From: Crocosphaera sp.
GTDB lineage: Bacteria; Cyanobacteriota; Cyanobacteriia; Cyanobacteriales; Microcystaceae
Reading direction: 5' to 3'
Length of the DNA stretch: 37,157 nt
Assembly: GCF_030064895.1 (NCBI RefSeq)
Contig: NZ_JASJEB010000085.1
Location: forward strand, 1-37,157
Below, in pieces: positions 1,335 through 37,157 of the stretch (positions within the stretch are counted from its first letter, which is position 1; each line of letters begins with the position of its first letter). The notes beneath the pieces were generated by a model. It did no database searches, was not told the origin of the DNA, and was given only the letters and a program-made list of their open reading frames with translations. Both the position numbers and the translations under genes were made by a program.

Positions 1335-1796
1335 ATGGTACAAATACCATCTCAATCTAACCTAAAAAAATTATATGAAATAGACGATTATCTTTGGATA
1401 GAAAAAACCATTAAACTCTTACAAGAAAAAAAATTTAATGAGTTAGATATAGAAAATTTAATTGAGGAATTAGAAGATTTGGGTAGAGAGAGAAAAAACA
1501 AAGTAGAAAGTTTACTAAGACAGATCATAGTTCATCTTTTGTTGTTAGAATATTGGTCAAAAGAATATCAATATAACTCTGCTCATTGGAAAGCAGAGAT
1601 TACTGAATTTAGATTTCAAATAAATGGTATTTTAACCAAAAACTTACAAAATTTTTTAGCTAATAGACTTGAATTAATTTATCAAAATAGTCTTAAATAT
1701 ACTAAAAGAAAAACTGAACTTAATACCTTTCCTCAAAAATGTCCTTATAGTCTAGAACAATTATTAGATGAAGATTGGTTCCCGACAAAATTATAA
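1335..1796 (+). CDS. DUF29 family protein
   Basis: This 153-residue protein matches the DUF29 family, a small all-helical family strongly expanded in cyanobacteria. Visible family features are the N-terminal YEIDDYLWIEKTIKLLQEKK, the acidic helix IENLIEELEDLGRERKNKVE (about 40-59), the core VHLLLLEYW (about 66-74), and the C-terminal CPYSLEQLLDEDWFP. There is no signal peptide or membrane segment. The start ATG at 1335 is followed directly by the family core. It overlaps nothing, and its stop lies only 2 nt from the convergent HEAT-repeat gene. No biochemical function is established for the family; genes of this kind often sit among other accessory genes, as here. Confidence 0.85.
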   Translation: MVQIPSQSNLKKLYEIDDYLWIEKTIKLLQEKKFNELDIENLIEELEDLGRERKNKVESLLRQIIVHLLLLEYWSKEYQYNSAHWKAEITEFRFQINGILTKNLQNFLANRLELIYQNSLKYTKRKTELNTFPQKCPYSLEQLLDEDWFPTKL

Positions 1797-1800
1797 ATTG

Positions 1801-2934
1801 TTAATTTTCATTCTTTTTTAATCCTGAAATTGCGTGTAATTTTACAGATTTATTAGAATCATTGGATAGTTTTTTGAGACAATTTATAGCTGTTTCATTT
1901 CCTAATTCTCCGAAAGTAACTGCCATCTTCTGCTTGATCTTTGTTTCTTGACTAATAGGGTTATTTGATAATAAAAATTCTTCTAAAATTTCACTGCTTT
2001 GATGTCTAAATATTTCACTTTTTGTAGTTGCTAATAAATCAATTATTATCTGACAAAATTCTATATCTTCAGTAAATAATGCTTGTTTTAAATAAATTAA
2101 TGCTTGAGATGATTCTGTCCAACTCAAAGCTTTAATTACTGCTTTTTTTAGTTCTATAGGAGTTGTTTTTTTCTGGAGAACTATAGATAATTCTTCTATT
2201 GCTTCATCTGTTTCAATTTTTCCTAAAGCTAGGGCTGTTTCTTGACAAATTTCTAAATTTATGTCATAAAGTAAAGGCTTTAAATGGGTAACAATATCAA
2301 ATTCTGTTGTTAATTGTGACTGCATTCCTAAAACGATAATAGCTTCTTTACGAACCCCAGAAACAGGATCATTTAACCTATTAATAAAGATAGGAATCAG
2401 TCGTTTTTGATGAAAACTACCCAAACATTCTAAAGCGATCGCCCTAATTTCTGGGTCAGGATCATTAACAACTTCTAACAAAGGTTTAATGGTATCTGAA
2501 TGACGAATTTGTGCTAATGCTTTAACAGCTAATAATCTAGAAGATTCATGCCTTTGTAGTAACATTTCTAGGCTTTCAATAGCAGAAATACCCATTTTTG
2601 TCAACCCTTCTGCTAGGATATTTAATAAGTCTTCTTCCTCTATTGTTTGTAATAATTGAGTAAAAGAAATAATAACTTTCAGATCATTAAATTCTGACAA
2701 AATACGAGCAACAAACCAACGATATTCAACCTCAATATTCTCATCTTCTAAGATAATTAATAAAGGTTCTATTATTTTTTCCCCAAGTTTAGGAAATAAT
2801 TTAGACACATCCCAACGCTGCTGAAAATCTCCTGATTCTAACAAGAATATTCCTAGTTTTATCAGTTCAAAATCATCAGTTTTTTTTTGATAAATTGCTG
2901 TTTTAAATTGTTGAATAGCTTGATCATTATCCAT
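1801..2934 (-). CDS. HEAT-repeat protein
   Basis: This 377-residue protein is built of repeated two-helix HEAT units. Examples are VKALAQIRHSDTIKPLLEVV, then PDPEIRAIALECLGSF and NDPVSGVRKEAIIVLG. The DPxxxVRxxA/AxxALG pattern recurs at roughly 31-residue spacing from about residue 55 to the C terminus. No lyase or protease residues are visible, so the phycobilin-lyase branch of HEAT proteins (CpcE/NblB) is possible but unproven. It starts 12 nt after the stop of the kinase-like gene on the same strand, so the two are probably co-transcribed. The protein may be a scaffold or partner of that kinase; this is inference from position only. Confidence 0.8.
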   Translation of the reverse strand: MDNDQAIQQFKTAIYQKKTDDFELIKLGIFLLESGDFQQRWDVSKLFPKLGEKIIEPLLIILEDENIEVEYRWFVARILSEFNDLKVIISFTQLLQTIEEEDLLNILAEGLTKMGISAIESLEMLLQRHESSRLLAVKALAQIRHSDTIKPLLEVVNDPDPEIRAIALECLGSFHQKRLIPIFINRLNDPVSGVRKEAIIVLGMQSQLTTEFDIVTHLKPLLYDINLEICQETALALGKIETDEAIEELSIVLQKKTTPIELKKAVIKALSWTESSQALIYLKQALFTEDIEFCQIIIDLLATTKSEIFRHQSSEILEEFLLSNNPISQETKIKQKMAVTFGELGNETAINCLKKLSNDSNKSVKLHAISGLKKNEN

Positions 2935-29071: not shown

Positions 29072-30049
29072 TTATTGAGATAATGCTGCTATTTCTCGGT
29101 CGATATCTTGCAACATTTCTGTGACAATATCCACCCGTTCCCATTGTCCATAGTCCCCGAATATTTGTTTCGCTTCTTGATAGTAACCTTGGGACTTTTT
29201 TAAATTATTGGGGTTTCCTGCTTCTGGGTGTTCAATATCATCCGGTAAGTTAAACAAAACATTCGCCTTATTAGCAATAGTATTGGCGTATTCGATGGGG
29301 GTATCTTTACGAGTTCTTACCTTCAACGCCTCATCATAAGCTGCTAATGCTTTCAAATTATTATCAATGGGATGGGAGGTATTAAGATACTGTAAAGCGT
29401 TGGCTAAATTGTTTTGTAGCATTGCATATTCACTGGGATGATCGATCAATGTCACCCATTTCAACGCTGATTCAAAAGACTGTACTGCCATCCCCTGACG
29501 CATTTTTTCTTGATCAGAACTTAACGGTAAAGACAGATAGGCGATCGCAATATTATTCTGTAAAATGGCAAATTCTTGAGGATAACTTTCACCCGTGAAT
29601 ACTTTAGCTGCTTCTTGATAAGCTTGGATAGTATCTTGCATGGTAGCCTGTCCGAAGTTAACCAAGCCTTGCAACACCACCCCTAAGTTCATCTGCGTTT
29701 CTGCAACTTCTTCCGGGGAAGCGTGTTCTTCTAAGATAGGTAAAGAATTTTCGTAGGCGGTTTTGGCCTCTAAGAGTAATTCCGACCCTTCACTGGGAAT
29801 AGTCCTTAAAGCCGTCCCCATTCCCGATAAACATCTCGCTTTTAACAAAGGCAGATCAGGGTTAGCTAATTCTAAACCTCTGCGGTATAGGAAAATAGAA
29901 TCTTCTAGTTGTTGGCTATTTTTTGGCTTCTTTTGCAACCCAGCAGCCATTTCTATCAACATTTCCACTTTTTCCGTAATGGTAGCTGTTTCAGACTCGA
30001 TCGCAGCTAAGGCAGCCTTTACATTGGCATCACTAATAGTCGGTGTCAC
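29072..30049 (-). CDS. Tetratricopeptide-repeat protein
   Basis: This 325-residue protein consists of TPR-like helical repeats. Repeated units include AETQMNLGVVLQGL, FAILQNNIAIAYLSL, YAMLQNNLANALQYL and YANTIANKANVLFNL, each followed by a second helix such as AVQSFESALKW or ALAAYDEALKV. The spacing between Q/N-N units is about 40-50 residues, which fits long TPRs. There is no signal peptide or catalytic motif; a scaffold role is likely. The start is GTG at 30049 (MTPTISDANV). It leads the minus-strand group with the two small membrane proteins and the NifU-Rieske fusion. Confidence 0.8.
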   Translation of the reverse strand: MTPTISDANVKAALAAIESETATITEKVEMLIEMAAGLQKKPKNSQQLEDSIFLYRRGLELANPDLPLLKARCLSGMGTALRTIPSEGSELLLEAKTAYENSLPILEEHASPEEVAETQMNLGVVLQGLVNFGQATMQDTIQAYQEAAKVFTGESYPQEFAILQNNIAIAYLSLPLSSDQEKMRQGMAVQSFESALKWVTLIDHPSEYAMLQNNLANALQYLNTSHPIDNNLKALAAYDEALKVRTRKDTPIEYANTIANKANVLFNLPDDIEHPEAGNPNNLKKSQGYYQEAKQIFGDYGQWERVDIVTEMLQDIDREIAALSQ

Positions 30050-34119: not shown

Positions 34120-34477
34120 TCATTCAGCCCACTGACGTAACAGATTAGCATGATTTTTGGCTAATAAATCAAATTCTACAGACTTACCTTCTTTAGCAAA
34201 GATAGAACGACGTACTGTGTCAATATCAAACAAAATTTCCCTTTTACTGCTATCTCGGATTAAACTTTGAATCCATCCTACAACCACTAATCTTGTTCCT
34301 GTTTTCACCCTTGCTACTCGATGCAAAAAGGTAGAAGGATAGAAAATAATTGAGCCTGCCTGTAGTTTATACGATAAATTCGCCTCTGGTTTTTCAATGA
34401 CCAATTCTCCCCCCTCATAACTTTCAGGAGAACTCAAGAATAAGGTAAAAGAGACATCCGAGCGAAAAAACTGTTTA
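34120..34477 (-). pseudogene. 3' part of a split PKHD-type hydroxylase (Fe(II)/2-oxoglutarate oxygenase)
   Basis: This fragment encodes the C-terminal part of a PiuC/YbiX-like oxygenase. It has QFFRSDVSFTLFL, then SPESYEGGELVIE, the distal iron ligand His in PSTFLHRV, the GTRLVVVGWIQSLIRD motif, and DTVRRSIF. Its reading frame is open up to 34477, where the transposon ends. Joined to the upstream fragment (36855-37060) at the GG boundary it gives one 187-residue open frame without a stop. A TTG start within it is not credible as a gene start, because the domain is cut. Confidence 0.85.
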
Positions 34478-34565
34478 CCGTTCCTATAAACTTACTCAAA
34501 GTTGATCATTTGAATAAGCGCAGACCGAACAGCCTTGTCTGCTAAGGTCAGGGAATCTCACCCTG
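34478..34565 (-). ncRNA. Candidate right-end guide RNA (reRNA/omega RNA) scaffold
   Basis: The stretch from the end of tnpB to the element boundary has inverted repeats GCAGAC/GTCTGC (34520-34525 with 34537-34542) and CAGGG/CCCTG (34549-34553 with 34561-34565); the second overlaps the tnpB stop. Right-end RNAs of TnpB systems fold like this and carry a guide read from adjacent host DNA. The guide here would be the minus-strand bases 34477 to 34458. This is inference from position and structure; no expression evidence exists in the sequence. Confidence 0.45.
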
Positions 34566-36174
34566 AAGAAAAAGTGCCAATGGGCTTGCTAGTCACCCCC
34601 GTCTGTTTTAAGACAGACTTCGATGATAGCGTGACCTTTTCTATGCTGTTAGCATCCCTATTCGAGAAAAAGCGATGTCTGGGTATGCCCTGACACTTTT
34701 TCTGGTATTTTCGCCATAAACTCCAAACGTGCTTACTATCATCCACTGGTTCAAGTAAGGCGGACTTGGCTGACGAAGGTAATCTTTCTGATAGTCTCAA
34801 AGCACGACGGGCTAAAACTAAGCCAGAAGCCATTGAACTATCAAGTCCATACATAGACATAAATTTGCTAATACCAATCAAACTTGAATAAGCAGGATTG
34901 AGACAAATTAATTCAATACCAATTCTTTGACAACGACTGGCTAAAATTTGATGGAATTTACTATAAGCAAAATTAGATAACATTCTCGCATATTTACGCC
35001 CTTTTTCCCCCAAAGCTGCTTTCTTTTTTTGAAAGTCTAATTTTTCTATTACCAGAGGACATTGATATTTCATGGCTAAGTCGACTAAGACTTTACATAC
35101 ATCCCCAAGTGTCGCAGTAGTTTGTTCATTTCTTCTATCGGCTAAGTTAAAAGAAATTTGACCTTTATCTCGTAAATTTCCTTCTCTATCAATAAAAGCC
35201 CATCCCACTAAATTAGGGTTAAAATCGACTCCAATGGCTCCATTTTTTCGATGTGATTGGTAAGGAATCTTTATCTGATTAGTGGTACAAAATATATACC
35301 ATTTATCTTTTTTATAAACAAAACGATAACTTAATGCTTGCTGATTATCTAATGCCCAATCAATAGTTTTTTGTCCATAAGTAAATTTAACACTTTCAAT
35401 CACTATTTTAGAAGTTCCTCTCATAACTTTATAGTTAGGATGAGTTTTATATTTATCGATAAGACTTGGAGGAATAGTAATAGCTAAAACTCCAGAACTT
35501 AACTGACAGTTTTGACATCCTGCTGTTTCATCTTTACTTCCTACATAACTAAATTCATGGTGACGGCGACTTTTCCAATCTTGTAACCATTCTTCATGGC
35601 AACTATAACCATTAGCTTCTAGATTAAATTGAGCATTCCATAGTTTTCGAGAACCAAATATAAGTTTTGGTTTATGAGTTTTGAGATAATTTAATTTAGT
35701 TCCTAAGCGATGAAGTTTTCGCTTTTTATGATGTAGTTTAGCTAAACTGTTTGCCCTTGGTGTTTTCTTGTTATGTTCTAGAGAACAAGCAGGATAATCT
35801 TTTCTTTTAGCAGAAGCTGTTTTTGAAGCGAACAATGGCTCTAACTTAACTCGATAAGTTAAATTTTTAAGACTTTTCTTTATGTGTTTAATCTTTTCTG
35901 TAACTTCTGTTATTTGTAATTGATAGCATTCTTGACGAGATTTTATTTTTCCTTGCAGAAATATTCTAATTGAATTAAATTGACGAGCATTAATTCCATA
36001 AATTAGTTGATATTCTTTCTTTAGTTCTTTTAAAGATTTTCCTTGTTTTAAAGATTGATGTTGTTCTAAATCTCGATAAAGTTGCCTTTCAATGGTACTA
36101 AATAATTTAGCAACATCAGCTAAGAAGCTAGATATTTCTGAAGGAGCTATAGTTGAGTAAGTTACGCTCTGCAT
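34558..36174 (-). CDS. tnpB: TnpB-related RuvC-type nuclease of an IS607-family element
   Basis: This 538-residue protein is longer than most TnpB (about 400). A basic helical N-terminal region (1-170) precedes a wedge-like part with GSKDETAGCQNCQL (212-225), then the RuvC-like nuclease with D317 (IGVDFNP), E377 (LVIEKLD) and D445 (YGLDSSMASGLVLARRAL). Between the last two there is no CxxC...CxxC zinc ribbon, unlike canonical TnpB; instead NPAYSSLIGISKFMSMYGLD lies there. This matches the large TnpB-related group. It is expected to be an RNA-guided DNA nuclease. It starts 3 nt after tnpA, and AGGAG within the last tnpA codons is its ribosome binding site. Confidence 0.85.
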   Translation of the reverse strand: MQSVTYSTIAPSEISSFLADVAKLFSTIERQLYRDLEQHQSLKQGKSLKELKKEYQLIYGINARQFNSIRIFLQGKIKSRQECYQLQITEVTEKIKHIKKSLKNLTYRVKLEPLFASKTASAKRKDYPACSLEHNKKTPRANSLAKLHHKKRKLHRLGTKLNYLKTHKPKLIFGSRKLWNAQFNLEANGYSCHEEWLQDWKSRRHHEFSYVGSKDETAGCQNCQLSSGVLAITIPPSLIDKYKTHPNYKVMRGTSKIVIESVKFTYGQKTIDWALDNQQALSYRFVYKKDKWYIFCTTNQIKIPYQSHRKNGAIGVDFNPNLVGWAFIDREGNLRDKGQISFNLADRRNEQTTATLGDVCKVLVDLAMKYQCPLVIEKLDFQKKKAALGEKGRKYARMLSNFAYSKFHQILASRCQRIGIELICLNPAYSSLIGISKFMSMYGLDSSMASGLVLARRALRLSERLPSSAKSALLEPVDDSKHVWSLWRKYQKKCQGIPRHRFFSNRDANSIEKVTLSSKSVLKQTGVTSKPIGTFSSG

Positions 36175-36177
36175 ATT

Positions 36178-36783
36178 TTATATCTCCTGAGCAATGTCTC
36201 TTAATTGTTCGACCATTTTTTTATTCTTGTGACTTCTTGACCCATATAATCTAGCAGAAAAGACAGTTATTATTTCTAAAACATCCTGCGCTAAATCTTC
36301 CTCATAACTTGACTCTTCTGTCCTGTTAATAATAACCACTTCTGTGCCAAAATGCTCACACAAGCTAAAAATTAATTCACTGCCAAATCTTAATAATCTA
36401 TCTTTTTGAGTTAAGACTAAACGCTCTACTTTGTTATCTACAATTAAACGAATTAATTTTTGTAATCCCCGCTTATTATAATTCATACCACTCCCTAAAT
36501 CTTTGATAATTTCATATTGCCATCCTTGTTGAGCGCAGAATAATTCTAATACCTCAATTTGTCTTTCTAGGTCTTTTTTCTGGTCATGAGAACTTGTCCT
36601 TGCATAGCCAATGGTATAAGAAAGTTCTTTGTCGATTCCTAAAAGTTGACATAGTTCATACCGCCGATGACCATTAGCCGTTCTTTGAGGAATTAACTTT
36701 CCTTCGGCTTCCCATCGTCTGAGGGTGCTTGTACTAACCCCTTTGAGTTTAGCTGCTTCAGAAATTGATAATAACTTACTCAT
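36178..36783 (-). CDS. tnpA: IS607-family serine recombinase TnpA
   Basis: This 201-residue protein opens with a MerR-type helix-turn-helix (about 5-45, SISEAAKLKGVSTSTLRRWE) followed by a serine-recombinase domain. The catalytic Ser64 is in YARTSSHDQKKDLERQ, and the arginine-rich TQKDRLLRFG is also conserved. IS607 transposases cut and join at GG dinucleotides with little target choice. The frame is intact and ends in a coupled overlap region with tnpB. Left-end sequence of about 70 nt separates its start from the hydroxylase fragment. Confidence 0.93.
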   Translation of the reverse strand: MSKLLSISEAAKLKGVSTSTLRRWEAEGKLIPQRTANGHRRYELCQLLGIDKELSYTIGYARTSSHDQKKDLERQIEVLELFCAQQGWQYEIIKDLGSGMNYNKRGLQKLIRLIVDNKVERLVLTQKDRLLRFGSELIFSLCEHFGTEVVIINRTEESSYEEDLAQDVLEIITVFSARLYGSRSHKNKKMVEQLRDIAQEI

Positions 36784-36854
36784 ATTTCTATGATAGCTTA
36801 TCTTATGAGTAATATTGAGTAGCTTTAGTTAAGTTTTGTGTAGCAGTCCCCAAA

Positions 36855-37060
36855 CCCTTCATCAAAGCGTTGTCTGTATGGCTACCGTAGTTCATATCTG
36901 GTTCATAGCGACTAAACCGTAGGGAGTGAATATGTTTAGGCTGAATGGCCAGTTTGAATAATAAGTTACGCTGTAGGGCGTTAATAACTAAATCTTGTAG
37001 GGGTTTTACCTCTGGAGAAGTTCTATCCAGTTGGCTATTACTGACATCTTGCACCTTCAA
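36855..37060 (-). pseudogene. 5' part of the split PKHD-type hydroxylase
   Basis: This fragment encodes the middle of the same oxygenase: NSQLDRTSPEVKPLQDLV, FKLAIQPKHIHSLRFSRYEP and the iron-binding HxD of NYGSHTDNALMK. It stops at the GG where the transposon begins. Similarity appears to extend a few residues upstream (GFY, to about 37078), but the usual first 35-40 residues of the family are absent; a heptamer repeat begins at about 37079. The gene is therefore broken at two places. Confidence 0.8.
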
Positions 37061-37080
37061 ATAAAATCCTAGTTTTGTTA

Positions 37081-37108
37081 GAGGCAGGAGTTGAAAGGCA
37101 GGAGGCAG
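37081..37108. repeat. GAGGCAG heptamer tract at the broken 5' end
   Basis: GAGGCAG (37081-37087), GAGTTGA, AAGGCAG (37095-37101) and GAGGCAG (37102-37108) form four heptamers in register. The unit is the same as in the array at 12998-13042. The tract abuts the hydroxylase fragment where its N-terminal coding sequence should begin. Inverted ends, if any, lie outside or are not recognised. Confidence 0.5.
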
Positions 37109-37157
37109 AAGGAGTAATAGCTAGATATAATCTTAAATAGCCAATTATGAGCAATTT

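What the first reader, a model, noticed from the sequence alone, without database searches (positions are those of the whole stretch)
34478..36854. IS607-family transposon inserted in a hydroxylase gene, with base-exact boundaries recovered by frame repair
Joining minus-strand host DNA at GG (36856-36855) to 34477 gives ATG AAG GGT AAA CAG and one open 187-residue PKHD-type frame that runs through the expected M-K-G-K-Q-F-F-R junction. The alternative neighbouring GG (36857-36856) is out of frame. The HxD ligand lies on one side of the insertion and the distal His on the other, so insertion abolishes the iron site. Clean excision would restore this part.
Basis: partly seen in the sequence, partly recalled or inferred. 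Interest (0 to 1): 0.75.

Follow-up and report, generated by a model that had tools for sequence, protein, structure and literature searches.

The report
Jumping gene inside a hydroxylase gene

Summary
Window 34478-36854 (minus strand, 2377 bp) is an IS607 element (serine transposase tnpA, tnpB, right-end RNA) between GG and GG. Seven of 8 other Crocosphaera genomes searched hold the uninterrupted site, ungapped; the junction is exactly GGTAAACAG in 2 of 7 and one synonymous base off in 5 of 7. Corrections: (1) the 187-residue frame starts inside a second insertion, a 226-bp repeat (window 37040-37157 plus the end of contig C83). The gene is in three pieces with no other copy found, so IS607 excision alone would not restore it. 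(2) GG stands at both ends, so three equivalent boundary notations exist. (3) Siblings read M-G-G-K-Q, not M-K-G-K-Q. New: tnpB is a divergent 538-aa protein without zinc finger; its 3' end overlaps a covarying reRNA without Rfam match, whose predicted guide is host DNA after the element, with GGG in the TAM position. At the probable third RuvC catalytic position this copy has Ser where its nearest relatives have Asp, so cleavage is uncertain. A new member of a known kind, with a modest lead about TnpB.

The parts
34478..36854 (-).
   Evidence: empty site in 7 of 8 other genomes of the genus; left end shared with two other copies
36855..36857 (-). host GGG before the left end: exchange GG (36856-36855) plus one more host G; presumed TAM of the TnpB
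   Evidence: frame and sibling alignment fix the third G as host DNA; at least GGG at 10 of 10 left ends looked at
34478..34479 (-). GG at the right end, followed by host TAAACAG
   Evidence: relatives' right ends read GGA(A/G)CGG or TGAACGG
36178..36783 (-). tnpA, IS607 serine transposase, 201 aa, N-terminal MerR-type HTH then resolvase domain
   Evidence: NF033518 212.2 bits against cut-off 110; PF00376 and PF00239; only match over the cut-off in the assembly
34558..36174 (-). tnpB, divergent TnpB-family protein, 538 aa, no zinc finger
   Evidence: TIGR01766 42.1 bits against 32; below the cut-off of NF040570, 34.5 against 100; AlphaFold2 model pLDDT 81.7 matches Cas12f, IS607 TnpB and RuvC folds
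34478..34656 (-). reRNA (omega RNA) scaffold overlapping the 3' end of tnpB and the right end
   Evidence: 26 of 45 pairs with two-sided changes in 5 sequences, 85.7% of cells paired against 68.8% shuffled and 38-44% slid; fold z -3.9; no Rfam match in the element up to E 1
34458..34477 (-). predicted 20-nt guide, host DNA directly after the right end
   Evidence: inference from IS607 TnpB/reRNA architecture (PMC10711439 passages)
36805..36844 (-). four repeats resembling CTTACTCAA (a word taken from the right end) at left-end positions 11, 22, 32 and 42; presumed TnpA binding sites
   Evidence: 5 hits within 3 mismatches (two of them overlapping) in the first 80 bases, reached by 13 of 5000 shuffles; interior windows at most 3
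36855..37039 (-). hydroxylase, middle fragment, with HxD (36880-36872)
   Evidence: NF003974 positions 43-104
34120..34477 (-). hydroxylase, 3' fragment, with distal His (34323-34321) and stop
   Evidence: NF003974 positions 106-221
37040..37157 (.). part of a second insertion: 226-bp repeat with near-inverted ends (ACTCACATCTTGC / GCAAGATGTCAGT), AAT on both sides; the rest is at the end of contig C83
   Evidence: copies elsewhere in the genome; contig C83 carries the hydroxylase 5' end and the other repeat end

Best explanation
An IS607-family element entered the hydroxylase gene of this Crocosphaera by serine-recombinase exchange at a host GG inside GGG. TnpA cuts at the dinucleotide, joins the circular element's GG to the host GG, and leaves no duplication. 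The right end encodes an RNA whose 3' part is host DNA beyond the element; with TnpB it is expected to recognise GGG followed by that sequence, i.e. the uninterrupted site, so that sites emptied by excision are cut and refilled from a sister copy. Shown here: insertion, boundaries, empty sites in relatives, open tnpA and tnpB frames, conserved RNA structure, GGG at the left end. Inferred: that the element still moves, that the RNA is made, and that TnpB cuts (doubtful, because the probable third RuvC position is Ser).
For: one of five joins is open throughout; 7 of 8 other genomes have the empty site with no gap; IS607 TnpA over its cut-off, inverted domain order; no terminal inverted repeats; spaced left-end repeats; two other copies start at the same left-end base; GGG at 10 of 10 left ends printed; covariation; the RNA model finds the structure at tnpB 3' ends of relatives; TnpB/Cas12f/RuvC fold; IS607 insertions at GG, (G)GG preferred; PMC6188088 passages; GG exchange, circular intermediate, GGG TAM of ISXfa1; PMC10711439 passages.
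Against: No read or expression data. TnpB has no Pfam family, is below the NCBI guided_TnpB cut-off (34.5 against 100) and has Ser447 where its close relatives have Asp. Only one other copy is in the assembly, damaged in tnpA and cut by a contig end. The left-end GGG may reflect TnpA target preference alone. The L062 RNA taken alone folds no better than shuffles.
Confidence: 0.93

Rival explanations
1. The element is an IStron or another self-splicing insertion, so that the hydroxylase mRNA is repaired and the insertion is harmless.
For: IS elements with group I introns (IStrons) are known (PMC4227781, start of abstract in the listing).
Against: No intron family reached E <= 1 in 34300-37157; the right end is accounted for by the reRNA; and the gene is also broken by the 226-bp repeat.
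Confidence: 0.02
2. The split comes from a mis-assembly that joins a hydroxylase end to a mobile element by chance.
For: Draft assembly of 188 contigs; the window ends in a repeat at which several contigs break.
Against: Both junctions of the IS607 element lie inside one contig, the two host halves restore one frame, and 7 of 8 relatives show the same sequence without the element. A false join would hardly restore the frame to the base.
Confidence: 0.02
3. TnpB here no longer cuts; the element moves by TnpA alone and TnpB at most binds DNA through its RNA.
For: Ser447 against Asp in the nearest relatives; the window lies inside the Asp clade with support 99/97; the other candidate acids D478 and D507 lie in model stretches with pLDDT under 50.
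Against: D317 and E377 are kept; D445 lies two residues away; tnpB is open over 538 codons, and 222 aligned codons of its first part show dN/dS about 0.3-0.4 against the second copy. Relatives with H, G or A at 447 keep the first two residues, so another third ligand is possible.
Confidence: 0.3

Closest known systems
IS607 family elements (IS607, IS1535, ISC1926) as described in PMC6188088 (passages)
   Same: TnpA with N-terminal HTH and C-terminal serine recombinase domain; GG at the termini and at the target; no terminal inverted repeats or target duplication; (G)GG targets; direct repeats about 10 bp apart in the left end, as in IS1535
   Different: tnpB belongs to a divergent long branch; copies in this assembly: one intact and one damaged
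ISXfa1 (IS607 TnpB and reRNA, PMC10711439, passages)
   Same: reRNA at the right end running into host DNA; GGG in the TAM position; GG crossover
   Different: the reRNA here has no Rfam match; this TnpB lacks the zinc finger typical of TnpB; whether the base after the right end is part of the scaffold here was not tested
ISFba1-type IS607 TnpB with RAGATH-18-derived reRNA (PMC11061315, passages; PDB 8iaz)
   Same: IS607-associated TnpB with structured right-end RNA and G-rich TAM; among the fold matches of the model
   Different: 387 aa against 538 aa; no Rfam match of the RNA here; TAM there AGGAG or GAGGG
Cas12m2 (PMC10442227, passages) and TldR (PMC13418256, listing only)
   Same: RNA-guided proteins related to TnpB that act by binding; Cas12m2 has a non-canonical RuvC triad
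   Different: the Cas12m2 triad (HDD) is altered differently; nothing here shows a regulatory target

Membership tests
IS607 family | TnpA of the IS607 serine transposase family with inverted domain order | tested here: met
   NF033518 212.2 bits, cut-off 110; MerR HTH at 6-42, Resolvase at 58-187
IS607 family | insertion at GG without target duplication | tested here: met
   7 of 8 other genomes of the genus show the uninterrupted site, ungapped
IS607 family | no terminal inverted repeats | tested here: met
   6 of 20 or 1 of 20 identical end bases, by register
IS607 family | transposition through a circular intermediate | not testable with these tools
   needs cells or DNA
TnpB / OMEGA RNA-guided nucleases | RuvC-type fold of TnpB/Cas12 | tested here: met
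   model pLDDT 81.7, pTM 0.64; Foldseek: Cas12f E 9.8e-09, ISFba1 TnpB 3.8e-06, RuvC chains TM 0.57-0.65 by target length; query-normalised TM of the ten best matches only 0.21-0.35
TnpB / OMEGA RNA-guided nucleases | D-E-D catalytic triad | tested here: inconclusive
   D317 in 37 of 38 rows (1 gap), E377 in 37 of 38; position 447 is Ser in the window (D 8, H 13, G 12, A 2, S 1, gap 2 of 38). That 447 is the third position rests on motif order and helix start; the profile alignment with canonical TnpBs does not carry through that stretch
TnpB / OMEGA RNA-guided nucleases | four-cysteine zinc finger between RuvC-II and RuvC-III | tested here: not met
   no CxxC between residues 377 and 447 of the translation (by eye)
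TnpB / OMEGA RNA-guided nucleases | NCBI guided_TnpB model over its cut-off | tested here: not met
   34.5 against 100 bits; the domain model TIGR01766 is over its cut-off, 42.1 against 32
TnpB / OMEGA RNA-guided nucleases | structured reRNA at the right end with guide in host DNA | tested here: met
   structure: covariation; guide by position only; expression not tested
PKHD-type hydroxylase (YbiX) | match to the family model | tested here: met
   NF003974 matched in three pieces, 1-53, 43-104 and 106-221; the last alone exceeds the cut-off, 175.3 against 143

The most novel reading that the evidence does not exclude
The element carries an RNA-guided protein from a widespread TnpB clade without zinc finger in which the third RuvC catalytic position is not fixed (Asp, His, Gly, Ala, and Ser here) while the first two acidic residues and, in many members, the reRNA fold are kept. 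The window copy would be a loss of the third Asp within the Asp clade (S-S-D to D-S-S), i.e. a TnpB that still finds the uninterrupted site with its host-derived guide but nicks, binds or cuts it in another way.
Probability: 0.3. Interest if true: 0.55.

Novelty: new member of a known kind. Interest (0 to 1): 0.36.

Why it matters
The case gives an empty/filled pair, exact to the exchange dinucleotide, for an IS607 element whose predicted guide, TAM position and target can all be read from the sequence, in a genus rich in such nucleases (9 of 9 Crocosphaera genomes have guided_TnpB matches over the cut-off). It also marks a TnpB branch in which the need for the third catalytic Asp can be tested with natural variants.

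Tried and rejected
Considered and rejected: an IStron (no intron hit); chance or false assembly; the peptide RDANS at tnpB residues 506-510 as the missing RuvC-III motif: it is read from the reRNA hairpin 1 (GCUAACAGC), the G006 relative reads GANS there, and the model has pLDDT under 50 there; D478 as substitute: D in 21 of 38 rows, mainly cyanobacterial, and in a segment with pLDDT under 50. A profile alignment with 18 canonical Crocosphaera TnpBs aligned RuvC-I and -II but not the third motif. The plasmid search found 84 records, none with 80% of the query in one place; the 20 rows listed match left-end and tnpA sequence. The viral collection gave 3 tnpB relatives. The left end of the G006 relative L062 could not be fixed: the DNA it shares with the G005 copy starts only at tnpA. 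Searches of the paper library for TnpB with variant catalytic residues listed 15 of 80, 12 of 25, 4 of 4 and 12 of 64 papers; none of those titles or abstract starts describes this clade. That is not proof of absence, and a large TnpB survey that I recall (Altae-Tran and others 2023; recalled, not read) may include it. The counts overlap: the D-type loci L136, L137, L138, L148 and L149 appear to be the same as L065, L063, L064, L067 and L066.

Full report
Setting. The window is the whole of contig C145 of a 5.5-Mb, 188-contig draft genome.

Observation. On the minus strand the hydroxylase reads ...ATG AAG GG, then the element, then (GG) TAAACAG... Of five left joins tried, only 36855/34477 leaves one continuous frame. 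The flanking pieces match NCBIfam NF003974 (PKHD/YbiX type) at 43-104 and 106-221. HxD and the distal His are on opposite sides.

Empty sites. One search covered 9 genomes: the own one and 8 others of the genus. Seven of the 8 others contain the uninterrupted gene (G001, G002, G004-G008); G003 gave no match. BLAST of the joined flanks covers 362-385 bases with equal lengths on both sides in 7 of 7, and the MAFFT alignment has no gap at the junction. The junction is GGTAAACAG in 2 of 7 (G004, G005) and GGTAAGCAG in 5 of 7. All 7 proteins read M-G-G-K-Q; the window reads M-K-G-K-Q, two or three base changes just before the exchange site. The window's pieces show no loss of constraint against siblings (dN/dS 0.085-0.147 in 7 of 7 comparisons; sibling pairs 0.050-0.167), so the insertions look recent.

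What the frame argument adds. Three G precede the left end but two precede the host DNA at the right end. Frame and sibling length show that the third G is host DNA, so the target was GGG, of which two bases were exchanged. This matters because GGG is the TAM of ISXfa1 TnpB (PMC10711439, passages) and (G)GG the preferred target of IS607 TnpA (PMC6188088, passages). The ten left ends that I printed all have at least GGG there: the window, C90 and G008 copies, four related IS607 elements of the genus (their own first base may be G) and three copies in genome G160 (one of these, L135, placed by resemblance only). Only for the window is the third G shown to be host DNA.

A second insertion. The first 118 bases of the minus strand (37157-37040) recur at 100% identity over 95-119 bases at six other places of the genome, and weaker or shorter at more; 29 matches including the window. 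The hydroxylase 5' end lies at the end of contig C83, followed by the other end of the same repeat. The two contig ends overlap by 8 bases, and further copies span the overlap. The repeat is 226 bp, has near-inverted ends and is flanked by AAT on both sides, near codon 43 of the gene. A family search finds the hydroxylase only in these three pieces, so the assembly shows no intact copy. That C83 and C145 are neighbours is inferred from these facts.

The element. tnpA is over the IS607 cut-off and is the only such match in the assembly. It and the left end are 92% identical over 689 bp to a remnant in C. watsonii WH 8501; tnpA dN 0.027, dS 0.32. The second own-genome copy (C90) has a deletion in tnpA and is cut by the contig end. 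Four repeats resembling CTTACTCAA, a word taken from the right end, stand 10-11 bp apart in the left end (a further copy with one mismatch on the other strand lies at the start of tnpA); this resembles the spaced motifs of IS1535 (PMC6188088, passages).

tnpB. No Pfam family. Relatives: 57 loci in genome contigs and 3 in viral contigs, and 18 of 388 genomes of the order at E <= 1e-80, the own genome included. An AlphaFold2 model (30 sequences, pLDDT 81.7, pTM 0.64) matches Cas12f, IS607 TnpB (8iaz) and RuvC chains; query-normalised TM-scores are low (0.21-0.35 for the ten best), so the match is of the RuvC core and general layout. D317 and E377 are practically invariant. Position 447, near the start of the helix 446-458, is D 8, H 13, G 12, A 2, S 1 and gap 2 of 38. 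Among 23 further loci of the order, 9 have D, 13 G and 1 A (five of the D loci repeat earlier ones). The window lies in the D clade (99/97, 35-row tree) and alone has Ser, with an Asp two residues earlier (D-S-S against S-S-D).

reRNA. Right ends of the window and four relatives align from GCUAACAGC to the terminal CGG. A structure taken from the window's own fold is kept by 85.7% of cells, with 26 of 45 pairs changed on both sides; of 500 shuffles none reaches four of the five measures and one reaches the fifth; slid versions pair 38-44%. The structure derives from one of the five rows, which favours it somewhat, and five sequences are few. The window RNA folds better than 200 of 200 shuffles (z -3.9); the L062 RNA does not (z -0.97; 36 of 200 as good). 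The covariance model matches 21 of 67 sources at E <= 2e-6, including the five it was built from and near-copies of them; the others are at tnpB 3' ends in Chlamydiota, Pseudomonadota, Verrucomicrobia, an unnamed bacterium, Bacillota (L080, about 290 bases beyond the frame) and a viral contig. Of the 14 G/A-type loci of that call none passes 0.01, 7 of 14 G/A-type loci pass 0.001, weakly, and 9 of 9 D-type loci strongly. Rfam gave no match up to E 1 in the element; the one match in the stretch (E 0.17, below its gathering score) lies outside it. Across the genus the model finds the RNA in 3 of 9 genomes.

Mechanism. The simplest account is the IS607 life cycle: circular intermediate, GG exchange, and reRNA-guided TnpB that recognises GGG plus the host flank, i.e. 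the empty site. Insertion, boundaries and RNA structure are shown; movement, transcription and cleavage are not. The Ser447 change makes cleavage by this copy uncertain.

Verdict. The thing is a new member of a known family. The less ordinary parts are the double disruption of the gene and the TnpB branch with a variable third catalytic position.

Noticed in passing
window 37040-37157; contigs C83 (end), C137, C76, C139, C102, C156, C174, C28 of the same genome: 226-bp repeat with near-inverted ends (ACTGACATCTTGCA type) in several copies, often at contig ends; sits in the hydroxylase near codon 43.
   Followed up: yes
L005, L011 (G002:C219, C200) and window 36178-36783: tnpA and left end about 72% identical to the window's are followed in G002 by guided_TnpB matches over the cut-off (G002:C200:14300-15358 and C219:13975-15033), so similar IS607 transposases pair with very different TnpBs.
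   Followed up: no
L068-L121 and L139-L157: TnpB relatives with His, Gly or Ala at the position of the third RuvC acidic residue, in Cyanobacteriota, Pseudomonadota, Chlamydiota, Bacillota and viral contigs.
   Followed up: partly
L045 (G005:C133), 1375-2280 minus strand: Element with an internal deletion that fuses the start of tnpA to the end of tnpB in one open frame of 302 codons, right-end RNA kept.
   Followed up: no
L092, 2848-6042: A tnpB relative inside an open frame of 1065 codons in Cyanomargarita; the extra part was not examined.
   Followed up: no
9 Crocosphaera genomes: 10 to 84 guided_TnpB matches per genome (the number of candidates scored was limited), a heavy TnpB load.
   Followed up: no
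window 29072-30049 (-): 325-codon frame with no Pfam match at E <= 0.001.
   Followed up: no
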